From Acidobacteriota bacterium (GTDB taxonomy: Bacteria > Acidobacteriota > Blastocatellia > HR10), in assembly GCA_030550025.1 (NCBI GenBank), contig JAUQQC010000001.1, positions 310,001-374,000 on the forward strand: a stretch of DNA of 64,000 nt, given 5' to 3'. The notes beneath the pieces are model-generated. The model did not search any database and was not told the DNA's origin. It was given only the letters and a program-made list of their open reading frames with translations. A program made the position numbers and the translations under genes. This document shows, one piece after another, positions 10,285-28,044 of this stretch. Numbering within the stretch: position 1 is the first letter of the stretch; each line of letters opens with the position of its first letter.

Positions 10285-11286
10285 TCACGATCCCGGATGG
10301 TGGAGCGAGAGCTCTTCATGTTCGATCGGCCGAACGCCCGCTGCTTCGGAAGCTGCGACCTTTCGCACTGGGACTGCGGCGCTGCGTCGCCGCTCTACGT
10401 GTTCGACCAATCGGCAGTATGCGCAGACTTCGGTCGTCGTCGGCTGGCCACAGCGTGAGCAGGGGACAAGCGCCGTAGCCTCGGCTTCCGCAAAGAGCGC
10501 GCGAATCTGATAGAAGCCGTCGAGGAAGCGCCGTTTCGTGCCTGGCGCTTGATGCTCCAACTGCGCGAGGAGGTCCTTGTACGAGAGCGTCGTCGCCCCA
10601 AGCGCATAGGGGCACTCGTCGCGGACGTAGGCGATCCGATTCACTAGGGCATAAACGGTCGTTTGCTTCTCGGTGAAATAGACGAAGGGCTTGACCTTCT
10701 TCTTCAATCCCTCTCGTTCGTCCAGGACCGGATATTGGCGAGCGAGATACCCGCGATTCCAATTGAGGACGTTCGAGAAGAGCACCGCAACTTCATCATC
10801 GAGGTTATGTCCGGTAGCGATCACATTGTACTCGGCTTCCAGAGCGTAGCGATTCATGAAATACCGTTTGATCAATCCGCACGCTGAGCACGCTTCGCGG
10901 GCCGTCAGGTCTTTGATCTCCGGAATCGGTGCGCCGACCTCTTCGGCCACGCTGACGACGTGCAATCGCCGACCGATCCGCTCGGCAAGCTCGAAGCATC
11001 GTTGCTTCGATTGCTCCGAATAGTTATTGCTGCCGACGATTCCCAGGTCAATATAGAAGCCATCGGCTTCATATCCAAGCGCATTGAGCGCATGCCAGAG
11101 CGAGAGACTGTCTTTCCCGCCGGAGACGGCAACCAAGACGCGATCCCGGCGGGAGAACATCTTGAACTTACGGATCGTGCGCTCTGTGTAGTCGAGAAAC
11201 CACGGCGAGTAGCACGCGGAGCAGAGCGCCAGCCGGTGCTCTGGCATGTAGATGATGGCTTTCTTCAGACACTTTCGGCACTTCAT
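10285..11286 (-). CDS. ttuA: TtuA-like tRNA 2-thiouridine (T54) synthetase
   Basis: A 333-residue member of the TtcA/Ncs6 adenine-nucleotide hydrolase group (TIGR00269-like). It has an N-terminal zinc finger with two Cys pairs (CRKC at about 3-6 and CSAC at about 22-25), the PP-loop motif SGGKDS (about 54), and a central CSAC pair plus a Cys in DECPYA that match the three cysteines holding the [4Fe-4S] cluster in TtuA. It ends with a C-terminal zinc finger, CSRC...CAYC. TtuA adenylates U54 of tRNA and inserts sulfur delivered as a thiocarboxylate on TtuB, which stabilises tRNA at high temperature. Its ATG overlaps the stop of the ubiquitin-like carrier gene (ATGA), strong support for this assignment over TtcA. 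A generic Ncs6-like role remains possible. Confidence 0.82.
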   Translation of the reverse strand: MKCRKCLKKAIIYMPEHRLALCSACYSPWFLDYTERTIRKFKMFSRRDRVLVAVSGGKDSLSLWHALNALGYEADGFYIDLGIVGSNNYSEQSKQRCFELAERIGRRLHVVSVAEEVGAPIPEIKDLTAREACSACGLIKRYFMNRYALEAEYNVIATGHNLDDEVAVLFSNVLNWNRGYLARQYPVLDEREGLKKKVKPFVYFTEKQTTVYALVNRIAYVRDECPYALGATTLSYKDLLAQLEHQAPGTKRRFLDGFYQIRALFAEAEATALVPCSRCGQPTTTEVCAYCRLVEHVERRRSAAVPVRKVAASEAAGVRPIEHEELSLHHPGS

Positions 11287-11480
11287 GGGCTGACGCCTCC
11301 AGAGACGACGCGGATCAGCTCGACCTCATCTTCGACCTCGAGCCATTCGTCTTCGGTCACGATCTCATCGTTCCTCACGACGACGACGGTCTCGGGCAAG
11401 AGGTCGAGCTTCTCGAGCAGCTTGCGCACGCTCATGCGCTCGGTGAATTCGTATTCCTGCTGGCCGTATCGAACTTTCAT
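11283..11480 (-). CDS. ttuB: TtuB-like ubiquitin-fold sulfur carrier
   Basis: A 65-residue beta-grasp protein of the ThiS/MoaD/TtuB type. It should be adenylated by an E1 enzyme, charged with sulfur as a C-terminal thiocarboxylate, and used by TtuA, whose gene it overlaps. The conserved acidic EDEVELIRVVSGG segment is present. The Gly-Gly is not terminal: it is followed by Val-Ser-Pro before the stop, and the Pro codon and TGA form part of the ATGA overlap with ttuA. Carriers with such tails need a peptidase to expose the diglycine. No strong ribosome-binding site precedes the ATG at 11480, and the gap to the HD gene is only 21 bases. Confidence 0.8.
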   Translation of the reverse strand: MKVRYGQQEYEFTERMSVRKLLEKLDLLPETVVVVRNDEIVTEDEWLEVEDEVELIRVVSGGVSP

Positions 11481-25080: not shown

Positions 25081-26109
25081 TCAGATTCCGATGTATCGGG
25101 CGTAGAGGCTCCGAGCTAGCGCCATGTCCTCCGTGCCTTTGATGATACAATGCCCGTCCGGGAAGAGAGTCAGCTCGTAGCCGTTCACGCGAAAGACGAG
25201 GAGGAATTCCTTGAGCGTCACCTCACCAAGCGGCTTCAGGCGTTCGGCGATCTCCCGCAGGTCGAGCGAGACGTCGCCGAGACCCGAAATGTGAACGGCA
25301 TTTCGCCCGCATAGTGTCAGGGCCGATTGGCGCAGGCTCGCTTCCAGGAACTCGAATCGCCGATGTCGGCAGGCCGGACAATCCGCGCGCTCACGCACCT
25401 TCTGCAGACTCACGCGATGGAAGGACGTCTCCCACACGTCCACCTGAATCACCCCCCCATGTAACTTCTCGATGCTCCCAGTGAGCAGCTTGAGCGCCTC
25501 CGTCACCTGGATCGAGGCGACGGTGAGGATGACGGGGAGGATGATGCCCGCCGTATCGCACGTCGGGGAGGAAGCAGGCGGGGGGATCTTCTCGAATACG
25601 CACCGCAAGCACGGCGTAACGCCAGGACGGATCGTCATCGTGAGCCCGTAGGAGCCGACGGCCGCGCCGTAGATCCACGGCTTCCCGTGTTTGACGCACG
25701 CATCGTTGATGAGATAGCGCGTCTCGAAATTGTCCGTGCCGTCGAGGACGACGTCCACATCGGTAATCAACCGCTCGATGTTCTTGTAGTTCACGTCGGC
25801 GACGACGGGCTCCGTCTGAACGTCGGCGTTAATGCGCGCGATGCGCCGGGCGCAGGCGATGGCCTTCGGGAGCCGTTCGGCAGCGTCGCGCTCCTCGAAC
25901 ATAATTTGCCGCTGCAGGTTAGACTCCTCGACGAAATCGCGATCCACCAGGCGCAGGAATCCCACGCCCGCACGCGCGAGCATCTCAGCCTGCGCCGCGC
26001 CGAGCGCTCCGCAACCGATGATGATGGCGCGACTCCGGAGCAGTCGCTCTTGTCCGGACTCGCCGATCTCCCGAAAGAGAATTTGCCGCGAATATTTCTC
26101 CCGGTTCAT
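25081..26109 (-). CDS. ThiF/MoeB-type E1 adenylyltransferase with extra C-terminal domain
   Basis: A 342-residue E1-like enzyme that adenylates the C-terminal glycine of a ubiquitin-like sulfur carrier. Visible are [20 protein letters not shown] (ATP-binding Rossmann motif, about 28), [12 protein letters not shown] (about 56), [16 protein letters not shown] (about 123) and two zinc-binding Cys pairs, CLRC and CPAC. The last about 75 residues form an additional alpha/beta domain without a recognised name. This is not the rhodanese domain found on many MoeB proteins, which here is a separate gene 43 bases upstream. In Thermus one such enzyme serves several carriers, so it may also activate TtuB. 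The start at 26109 follows GGGAGGGGT. Confidence 0.88.
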
Positions 26110-26152
26110 ACCCCTCCCGATCGAAGAAGCTATCGGATTTCTCCTTCGTCCG

Positions 26153-26524
26153 TCAACTCCCTGCCCCACGCACTCCATACAGCGGAAGCGGGAGACCCAC
26201 GCGCGCGGCCCACGCCCGAATCCCCCCGCGCAGAATTATGCCCCGATAGCAATAGAGGTCGGCACGCGGGTCCAGCTCGCTCGCCCGCCACGGAAGCTCG
26301 GGCCAGCGGATGAGCCACGAGCCAGGAATTCGGCAATAGGCGTGTTCGTCCGGCTGCCGCACGTCCACCAAAAGGATGGCACCCGGACCCTCCTCCAGAA
26401 GGGCTTTCAATTCCTCGGGCTCGATCCCTTTCGGCCGCGCGCGAGCGCACGGGGCCAGGTCAACAACGGAGGACGGACTCGCTCCCACCCGCGATGGCGG
26501 GAATGATGGAAACTTCCGTGCCAT
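26153..26524 (-). CDS. Shortened rhodanese-like sulfurtransferase domain protein
   Basis: A protein of up to 123 residues with a single rhodanese domain. [19 protein letters not shown] and the active-site start DLYCYRG (Cys about 92) are present. Next, where rhodaneses carry a loop completion, a helix and a strand, the sequence runs directly into [16 protein letters not shown], so roughly 15-20 residues are missing in frame. The catalytic Cys remains but its loop is atypical. The ATG at 26524 overlaps the end of the carrier gene by 65 bases. A GTG at 26488 would reduce the overlap, and the domain starts only at about residue 33. It would normally load persulfide sulfur onto the carrier. It may be degenerate. 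Confidence 0.68.
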
Positions 26525-26756
26525 CTCGCACCTCGGTCGCCAGTCCGCTCAGAAAGCGAATATCCTCGCCATCCACGTAGATGTTCACAAACCGCCGGAG
26601 CTGTCCATCGGGTTCGCGCAAACGCTCGGTGATGCCCGGATACTGTCGTTCCAATTGCTCTAACAGTTCGCCGACAGTTCCAGCCGACAGTTCGATCACA
26701 TCACGGTTCTCTGTAAAACGTCGGAGCGGTTGCGGAATCCGGACCGTCACGCTCAT
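26460..26756 (-). CDS. MoaD/ThiS/CysO-like sulfur carrier with C-terminal tail
   Basis: A 98-residue beta-grasp protein. A ubiquitin-like fold is indicated by VRIPQPLRRFTENRDVIEL, GTVGELLEQLERQYPG (helix), FVNIYVDGEDIR and the C-terminal [11 protein letters not shown]. The diglycine, where sulfur is attached as a thiocarboxylate, is followed by seven more residues, SESVLRC, confirmed by reading the codons up to the TGA at 26460. It resembles CysO/HcyS-type carriers that feed sulfur to PLP enzymes, and its gene lies 25 bases after a threonine-synthase-like gene. The start at 26756 has AGGAGGG upstream. The upstream in-frame extension is low-complexity arginine-rich and rejected. MoaD for molybdopterin is less likely because no moa genes are near. 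Confidence 0.82.
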   Translation of the reverse strand: MSVTVRIPQPLRRFTENRDVIELSAGTVGELLEQLERQYPGITERLREPDGQLRRFVNIYVDGEDIRFLSGLATEVRDGTEVSIIPAIAGGSESVLRC

Positions 26757-26781
26757 CGTCTCGTGCCCTCCTGACAGGGAT

Positions 26782-28044
26782 TCATATTCCTTCTCGGAGC
26801 AGTCGTTCCACTTCGGCGATCTTCGGCGCGATGGTGATGGGAGGCGATGCCGTGAGCGCCTCCATCGTCTTGAGGCCATTTCCGGTAATGGTCAAGATGA
26901 TCGTCTCATCGGGAGAGAGACGCCCTTGCTCGGCGAGCTTCTTCGTCACGGCGACGGTTACCCCTCCGGCCGTCTCCGTGAAGATCCCTTCCGTCTCGGC
27001 CAGCAGGCGAATGCCTTCGCGGATCTCCTCATCGGTAGCATCCTCGGCCCAACCGCCGCTCTCGCGGATAGCTCGCATGGCGAAATAGCCATCGGCAGGA
27101 TCGCCGATGGCCAGCGAATGCGCGATCGTCCGCGGTTTCACCGGACGAATTTCCTCGCTCCCTTCTCTGATGGCCGCGACAATCGGATTACACCCTCGCG
27201 CCTGGGCTCCGAATAAGCGGGGACGCGCCGGGGGGATCAGACCCAGGTGTTGCAGCTCCGCGAACGATTTGTGAATCTTCGTCAGAAGCGAACCTCCGGC
27301 CATCGGGACGACCACGGCATCGGGAGCGCGCCAACCCAACTGCTCAGCGATCTCAAAGCCTACGGTCTTAGAGCCCTCCGAATAGAAGGGGCGAAGATTG
27401 ACATTAACCAACCCCCAGTTCAAGGTGTAGACGATCTCGCTGCAGAGACGATTGACGTCATCGTAGGTGCCGCGAATGGCGATCACCCGCGCCCCATAGA
27501 TCTGCGTGCCGAGGATTTTCGCTTGTTCGAGCATCTCCGGGATGAAGACGTAGGCCTTCAATCCCGCCCGCGCGGCATTGGCAGCGACCGAGTTGGCCAG
27601 ATTTCCCGTCGAGGCGCACCCCACCGTGTCGAAGCCGAATTCGCATGCTTTGGAGAGCGAGACAGCGACGACACGATCTTTGAACGAGAGCGTGGGATGG
27701 CATACGCCATCATTCTTGATGTAGAGGTTCTTTAGTCCGAGCGCGGCGCCCAATCGCGGGGCCGGCACAAGCGGCGTGTATCCGGTCTCGGCCCCCACGC
27801 GCGGCGGGACGCCCAAGGGCAGCAGCTCCCGGTATCGCCACATCGTCGGGGGACGCGAGGCGATAAGCTCACGGGAGATCACACGCACGAGCGCGGCGTA
27901 GTCGTACTCTACTTCCAGAGGGCCGAAGCACTCTTCGCAAATCGCTACCGGCCGCTCTGGATACTCTGCGCGACAGAGCCGACACCGCAATCCGGTCACG
28001 TAACTTCGCGTTTCCGCCTCGACGGTGTTAGTGGCTTGTGCCAT
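26782..28044 (-). CDS. thrC: Threonine-synthase-like PLP enzyme
   Basis: A 420-residue fold-type II PLP enzyme of the threonine synthase group. An N-terminal zinc-ribbon-like segment (CRLC...CEEC, about 18-40) precedes the catalytic region with the PLP lysine in HPTLSFKDR (about 122), the phosphate-binding-like GCASTGNLANS and AGGSLLTK. Threonine synthase converts O-phosphohomoserine to threonine. Relatives with the same fold add sulfide or a carrier thiocarboxylate instead. The direct link to a sulfur carrier, a rhodanese and an E1 makes a sulfur-transfer reaction a real alternative, so the symbol is tentative. The ATG at 28044 has GAGGAGAG; the frame upstream is open but lacks a ribosome site. 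A structured leader of about 120 bases precedes it. Confidence 0.85.
   Translation of the reverse strand: MAQATNTVEAETRSYVTGLRCRLCRAEYPERPVAICEECFGPLEVEYDYAALVRVISRELIASRPPTMWRYRELLPLGVPPRVGAETGYTPLVPAPRLGAALGLKNLYIKNDGVCHPTLSFKDRVVAVSLSKACEFGFDTVGCASTGNLANSVAANAARAGLKAYVFIPEMLEQAKILGTQIYGARVIAIRGTYDDVNRLCSEIVYTLNWGLVNVNLRPFYSEGSKTVGFEIAEQLGWRAPDAVVVPMAGGSLLTKIHKSFAELQHLGLIPPARPRLFGAQARGCNPIVAAIREGSEEIRPVKPRTIAHSLAIGDPADGYFAMRAIRESGGWAEDATDEEIREGIRLLAETEGIFTETAGGVTVAVTKKLAEQGRLSPDETIILTITGNGLKTMEALTASPPITIAPKIAEVERLLREGI

What the first reader, a model, noticed from the sequence alone, without database searches (positions are those of the whole stretch)
26460..26756. Second ubiquitin-like carrier also has a post-diglycine tail (SESVLRC)
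The carrier of the thrC-like operon ends GG followed by seven residues, again through overlap with its neighbour. Two carriers in one window with masked diglycine make a shared trimming peptidase likely (inference). The tail ends in Cys, which could itself take part in persulfide chemistry.
Basis: partly seen in the sequence, partly recalled or inferred. Interest (0 to 1): 0.55.

Follow-up and report, generated by a model that had tools for sequence, protein, structure and literature searches.

The report
Sulfur carrier with a removable cap
A small bacterial sulfur-carrying protein is made with a short, apparently useless cap over its working end, and comparison of many relatives suggests that one cutting enzyme, kept to free another carrier from a fused protein, lets most carriers in such cells drift into having caps.

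Summary
The carrier at 26460-26756 (minus strand) is a CysO/ThiS-like protein that ends GG-SESVLRC. It is not a frameshift: four congeners have in-frame caps too (SGHFLLR, SAL, GAL, NEHAPSL). Cap length and the final Cys are not conserved, and 12 of 21 same-class orthologues end exactly at GG, so the persulfide idea fails.

The cap is not special to this operon. All five ThiS-family carriers of this genome have a masked diglycine (two fusions, three short caps), and the genome has two JAMM peptidases of different clades. Type 1 sits beside a CysO::MoeB::rhodanese fusion; type 2 stands elsewhere.

Over 58 Blastocatellia genomes, type 2 tracks masking. A MoaD::MoaE fusion is in 26 of 26 genomes with type 2 and in 3 of 31 without it (MoaD unseen in one more). 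ThiS caps: 18 of 26 against 0 of 30. Fifteen of the genomes served as a prediction test.

Best reading: a general JAMM, needed to free MoaD, trims any carrier; exact C-termini are then no longer selected and caps drift in. Capped carriers with JAMM trimming are known (QbsE/QbsD, PtmS2/PtmS3/PtmS1). The link between one JAMM clade and capping of several paralogous carriers is the new part. Cleavage was not shown.

The parts
26460..26756 (-). ThiS/MoaD/CysO-like sulfur carrier, 98 aa, ends GG-SESVLRC
   Evidence: beta-grasp model with mean pLDDT 90.8
26463..26483 (-). seven-residue cap SESVLRC after the diglycine
   Evidence: last block of residues modelled with mean pLDDT 49, i.e. probably disordered; not conserved in congeners
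26484..26489 (-). diglycine (GG), invariant in the 50-sequence alignment
   Evidence: G90, G91 invariant
26782..28044 (-). threonine-synthase-like PLP enzyme, a paralogue (one of three ThrC over cut-off in this genome)
26153..26524 (-). rhodanese-like ORF overlapping the carrier's 3' end; about 24 residues around the active loop missing against congeners
25081..26109 (-). MoeB/ThiF-type E1 adenylyltransferase, the likely activator of the carrier
11283..11480 (-). second capped carrier in the window, TtuB-like, ends SGG-VSP
10285..11286 (-). TtuA-like tRNA 2-thiolation enzyme, partner of the VSP-capped carrier

Best explanation
The carrier is made as a precursor whose diglycine is masked by a short, selectively neutral cap. 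A JAMM metallopeptidase encoded elsewhere in the genome (most likely the type-2 JAMM at G000:C7:80014-80346, possibly also the type-1 JAMM at C18:22616-22960) cuts after the second Gly. The operon's MoeB/ThiF E1 then adenylates the free Gly, sulfur is loaded as a thiocarboxylate, and the carrier hands sulfur to the ThrC-like PLP enzyme beside it, in the manner of CysO and CysM. Caps exist because the type-2 JAMM, kept in the cell to split the MoaD::MoaE fusion, makes the exact stop position of every carrier unimportant, so stop codons drift. Shown here by sequence: the cap, its lack of conservation, the JAMMs, their two clades, and the co-occurrence. Inferred: the cleavage, which JAMM does it, thiocarboxylation, and the ThrC-like partner's reaction.
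For: Five of five PF02597 carriers in G000 are masked: MoaD::MoaE fusion, ThiS GGG-A, TtuB-like GG-VSP, this carrier, and a CysO::MoeB::rhodanese fusion. Two strong JAMMs fall in two clades split with 100/100 support. In all 58 class genomes read, type-2 JAMM goes with MoaD::MoaE fusion (26 of 26 against 3 of 31; MoaD not seen in G048) and with ThiS caps (18 of 26 against 0 of 30; no complete ThiS in G004, G054); permutation within families gives 0 of 200,000 and p 1.5e-5. In the 15 genomes scored for JAMM before their ThiS and MoaD were read, fusion was 10 of 10 against 0 of 4 and ThiS caps 6 of 10 against 0 of 5. In 80 loci of the collection scan, strong JAB is in the genome for 47 of 51 capped and 14 of 29 bare carriers; a JAMM lies in the same locus for 27 of 51 capped and 1 of 29 bare. 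In 15 genomes without strong JAB, 42 of 42 carriers end exactly at GG. In seven f4 genomes the type-2 JAMM match lies 71-230 bp from the MoaD::MoaE match. Literature: DRJAMM cleaves MoaD-MoaE (PMC8832034, passages); deletion of JAMM gene ptmS1 abolished the pathway that uses capped carriers (PMC6006322, section 7).
Against: No cleavage was measured. Co-occurrence is clustered by lineage: Verrucomicrobia supply 13 of the 15 bare, JAB-less loci, and genomes of one genus are not independent. JAMM is not sufficient: thrC-linked carriers are bare in 10 of 16 type-2 genomes that have one, and the Cyanobacteria and Actinobacteria read are bare although 7 of 8 have JAB. Exceptions: caps without a strong JAB in 4 of 51 (L042, L076, L096, L106), MoaD fusion without type 2 in G004, G054, G056 (73, 83, 87% complete), and caps with type 1 only in G018 and G043 (GG-C). 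The G013 JAMM sits on a long branch. The window's operon itself has no JAMM gene.
Confidence: 0.75

Rival explanations
1. The type-1 (Mec-like) JAMM of the cysM-JAMM-CysO::MoeB::rhodanese operon is the trimmer of this carrier, and type 2 serves MoaD::MoaE only.
For: The carrier is closest to CysO among solved structures (3dwg, E 6.4e-23) and to the CysO part of the fusion (42% identity). G004, G018 and G043 have capped thrC carriers with only type 1 found.
Against: Type-1-only genomes have no ThiS cap (0 of 16 in which ThiS was read, counted) and only 3 of 17 have any capped stand-alone carrier; G004 is 73% complete and G043 83%.
Confidence: 0.3
2. The cap is a functional tail: a regulatory tag or, with its Cys, part of persulfide chemistry.
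For: A cap is present in all five species of the genus read and is a loose end in the model.
Against: Length 3 to 7 and unrelated letters in congeners whose proteins are 87-94% identical overall; the Cys is in this genome only.
Confidence: 0.05
3. The capped carrier is a dead or non-sulfur protein, e.g. used only for protein conjugation after processing, or decaying together with the eroded rhodanese beside it.
For: The rhodanese ORF has lost about 24 residues round its active loop; other Ub-like carriers double as modifiers (TtuB, PMC3980101).
Against: The carrier body and GG are strongly conserved (15 invariant columns in 50 sequences); the E1 and ThrC-like neighbours are intact.
Confidence: 0.1
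4. Sequencing or assembly error, or the wrong stop.
For: None found.
Against: Four separately assembled congeners have in-frame caps.
Confidence: 0.01

Closest known systems
Capped sulfur carriers PtmS2 (GG-MV) and PtmS3 (GG-C) with the JAMM PtmS1 of Streptomyces platensis (PMC6006322), and QbsE/QbsD
   Same: ThiS/MoaD-like carrier with residues after GG; one JAMM in the genome serves capped carriers; JAMM deletion stops the pathway (section 7 read).
   Different: There, two other carriers of the genome are bare GG; here all five ThiS-family carriers are masked, ThiS among them, and the JAMM is not beside this carrier.
CysO/CysM/Mec of Mycobacterium tuberculosis
   Same: Closest solved relative of the carrier (3dwg); carrier beside a PLP enzyme.
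   Different: CysO's solved chain ends where the match ends, at GG; here there is a cap, the PLP enzyme is ThrC-like, and no JAMM lies in the operon.
MoaD-MoaE fusions: DRJAMM of Deinococcus radiodurans (PMC8832034) and MoaX of M. tuberculosis (PMC4326299)
   Same: The masked diglycine inside a fusion must be cut to work; this genome has such a fusion and a JAMM.
   Different: The present case adds short caps on stand-alone carriers in the same genomes.
TtuA/TtuB/TtuC of Thermus thermophilus (PMC3980101)
   Same: The other capped carrier of the window lies beside a TtuA-like gene; in Thermus one E1 serves TtuB, MoaD and ThiS, and a JAMM mutant loses about half the thiouridine (passages).
   Different: No cap on TtuB is mentioned in the passages read.

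Membership tests
capped sulfur carriers (QbsE/PtmS2 kind) | ThiS/MoaD beta-grasp protein | tested here: met
   PF02597 E 2.8e-17; model
capped sulfur carriers (QbsE/PtmS2 kind) | residues after the C-terminal diglycine | tested here: met
   GG-SESVLRC
capped sulfur carriers (QbsE/PtmS2 kind) | a JAMM metallopeptidase in the genome | tested here: met
   two strong Prok-JAB, C18 and C7
capped sulfur carriers (QbsE/PtmS2 kind) | JAMM gene clustered with the carrier | tested here: not met
   none in the window operon; met in 28 of 80 other loci. An arrangement of known cases, not a requirement: PMC6006322 says PtmS2 may be complemented by PtmS3
capped sulfur carriers (QbsE/PtmS2 kind) | removal of the cap by the JAMM | not testable with these tools
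   needs enzyme assay
CysO | sequence kinship with M. tuberculosis CysO | tested here: met
   3dwg_C E 6.4e-23 over residues 1-91
CysO | operon with cysM and mec, bare GG end (operon recalled; end) | tested here: not met
   thrC-like/rhodanese/moeB operon and a cap
threonine synthase (ThrC, the partner) | over the TIGR00260 cut-off | tested here: met
   283.1 bits against 167.1
threonine synthase (ThrC, the partner) | the genome's only ThrC | tested here: not met
   one of three in G000; 31 of 38 genomes have two or more, and the four read without the thrC-linked carrier have one
DRJAMM-like MoaD-MoaE protease (type-2 JAMM) | co-occurs with and lies beside MoaD::MoaE fusions | tested here: met
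   26 of 26 genomes; 71-230 bp between matches in seven f4 genomes; direct kinship with DR_0402 not tested

The most novel reading that the evidence does not exclude
In Blastocatellia one housekeeping JAMM (type 2) is a general carrier-maturation peptidase. Once MoaD was fused to MoaE, this enzyme became indispensable, the exact C-terminus of every other carrier stopped being selected, and caps accumulated neutrally until thiamine, molybdenum cofactor, tRNA 2-thiolation and the ThrC-linked pathway all came to depend on one protease. This would be a one-way evolutionary ratchet.
Probability: 0.5. Interest if true: 0.65.

Novelty: new variant of a known kind. Interest (0 to 1): 0.5.

Why it matters
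If true, one protease becomes a single point of control for several sulfur pathways, and the end of a sulfur carrier (bare or capped) can be read from sequence as a signature of which JAMM an organism keeps. It also gives a clean natural case of neutral complexity: losing the need for an exact protein end because a processing enzyme is present for another reason. The ThrC paralogue tied to a CysO-like carrier in many phyla points to an undescribed sulfur-transfer reaction of amino-acid metabolism (inference).

Tried and rejected
Terminal-Cys chemistry: rejected, the Cys is not conserved. Overlap as cause of the cap: rejected, G002 has a cap without the rhodanese ORF. Assembly frameshift: rejected (the G005 row of that alignment was taken from the wrong strand and is ignored). 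A simple 'any JAMM implies caps' rule: rejected, since 53 of 57 relatives have some PF14464 match and many are bare; separating two JAMM clades explained this. One JAMM of G014 (C87), which I first labelled type 2, falls in the type-1 clade; it was relabelled and G014 keeps its own type-2 copy (C24). The Wolinella HcyS/HcyD paper is not held. Searches of the library for a genome-wide link between JAMM and capping listed nothing that says so; only titles and starts of abstracts were seen there, plus passages of the papers cited.

Full report
WHAT IS THERE. The minus strand of 25081-28044 holds thrC-like, carrier, rhodanese-like ORF, moeB/thiF. The carrier reads [13 protein letters not shown]-stop; its ThiS match ends at the second Gly. 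Its closest solved relative is M. tuberculosis CysO (3dwg; the name CysO is recalled, the entry calls it cfp10A). A model from 50 orthologues has mean pLDDT 90.8; the last block, residues 91-98, averages 49, so the cap is probably a loose end.

THE CAP IS NOT CONSERVED. Congeners carry SGHFLLR, SAL, GAL and NEHAPSL; G005 (same family) KG. Of 21 same-class thrC-linked carriers, 9 are capped and 12 end exactly at GG (loci L009-L029). Of 80 loci from genome contigs, 51 are capped by 1 to 80 residues and 29 bare; two of the 80 (L039, L040) are congeners. The long cases L056 (29, with unread letters), L065 (45) and L090 (80) are counted as capped. GG is invariant in the alignment of 50. The terminal Cys is in no congener.

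ALL FIVE CARRIERS OF THE GENOME ARE MASKED. PF02597 gives five places: MoaD::MoaE fusion (C23:120801), ThiS ending GGG-A (C13), this carrier, the CysO::MoeB::rhodanese fusion (C18:23071), and the TtuB-like carrier ending GG-VSP in this same window beside a TtuA-like gene. Prok-JAB gives three places, two strong: C18:22616, between a cysM-like gene and the CysO fusion, and C7:80014; the third (C3, 33 bits) is weak.

TWO JAMM CLADES. Strong JAMM domains, 26 type-2 and 24 type-1 rows, split with 100/100 support (a first tree with 42 rows). Type 1 includes the copies next to CysO fusions; type 2 lies elsewhere, and in seven f4 genomes 71-230 bp from the MoaD::MoaE match. The remaining strong rows were assigned by adjacency to the CysO fusion and not put on a tree.

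CO-OCCURRENCE. Carriers were read in all 58 genomes G000-G057. Type 2 is found in 26, type 1 only in 17, no strong JAMM in 15. MoaD::MoaE fusion: 26 of 26 with type 2; 3 of 31 without (G004, G054, G056: 73, 83, 87% complete; G056's congener G035 has type 2); MoaD not seen in G048. ThiS caps: 18 of 26 with type 2; 0 of 30 without (G004 and G054 gave no complete ThiS). Permuting type-2 status within families: 0 of 200,000 and p 1.5e-5. Families f5, f6 and f8 each hold both states and agree. Any capped stand-alone carrier: 21 of 26 with type 2, 3 of 17 with type 1 only, 0 of 15 with none (my count). Two ORFs of the last group end VG-WKRPYG without GG and are left out, as is one ThiS cut by a contig end.

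PREDICTION TEST. After 43 genomes, type-2 status of the other 15 was fixed (four also by the tree) and noted before their ThiS and MoaD were fetched; six of the ten type-2 calls were confirmed by sequence afterwards. Their thrC-linked carriers had been seen. Result: fusion 10 of 10 with type 2 against 0 of 4 (Fisher 0.001), ThiS caps 6 of 10 against 0 of 5 (Fisher 0.044).

OTHER PHYLA. Capped thrC-linked carriers lie in genomes with strong JAB in 47 of 51 cases, bare ones in 14 of 29 (Fisher 1.8e-5, not corrected for kinship). A JAMM lies in the same locus for 27 of 51 capped and 1 of 29 bare; locus lengths differ, so these are lower bounds. I read all PF02597 carriers in the 19 genomes without strong JAB: in 15 of them 42 of 42 end exactly at GG; the other four are the exceptions, with 5 of 7 capped. 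Thirteen of the 15 are Verrucomicrobia, so this is few independent events.

MECHANISM. Known chemistry asks for a free C-terminal Gly (PMC6006322 section 7). The cap must therefore be cut, or the protein is not a sulfur carrier. JAMMs do this for MoaD-MoaE (PMC8832034, passages) and are needed for capped carriers (PMC6006322); MoaX must be cut at its GG, there by a protease then unidentified (PMC4326299, passages). Iyer et al. 2006 already proposed that JABs free fused ThiS/MoaD (PMC1779556, passages). The step I add is that where such an enzyme is kept, ordinary carriers lose their exact ends.

PARTNER. The ThrC-like enzyme passes the TIGR00260 cut-off but is one of three such in this genome. 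Of 38 genomes searched, 31 have two or more; the seven with one are G020, G027, G034, G055 (no thrC-linked carrier), G062 (its carrier has no thrC beside it), G089 (its thrC is cut by the contig end) and G132 (a true exception). So it is probably a paralogue with its own, sulfur-related job. What it makes is not known.

VERDICT. The carrier is a new case of a known kind, capped and probably JAMM-trimmed. The tie between one JAMM clade and capping of several paralogous carriers, ThiS included, is a variant I did not find in the searches made. No cleavage has been shown.

Noticed in passing
window 26153-26524 (-): The rhodanese ORF lacks about 24 residues, including part of the active loop, that congeners L010-L012 have; G002 and G005 show no rhodanese ORF there.
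   Followed up: partly
window 10285-11480 (-): TtuA-like gene overlapping a TtuB-like carrier that is itself capped (VSP); congeners have caps RAGV, VSP, VGT, FVGV.
   Followed up: yes
L016, L019, L054, L088: thrC-linked carriers that end GG plus a single Cys, as PtmS3 of Streptomyces does; a GG-Cys end resembles the carrier-cysteine adduct that Mec is known (recalled) to cut.
   Followed up: no
L006 1893-3345: CysO::MoeB::rhodanese triple fusion downstream of cysM-like and JAMM genes; widespread in the class.
   Followed up: partly
L309-L314, L231: ThiS-like ORFs of genus g16 that end VG-WKRPYG(A/T)(I/V), conserved and without a diglycine.
   Followed up: no
L355 3289-5401: The type-2 JAMM of this genome lies downstream of a large ORF that looks like BshC (recalled, no family search run).
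   Followed up: no
G099:C101:5617-6217 (L142, L144); G066:C374 (L149): Two thrC-type carriers in one Verrucomicrobia genome, PAIAGG and PAFAGG forms, in tandem in G099.
   Followed up: no
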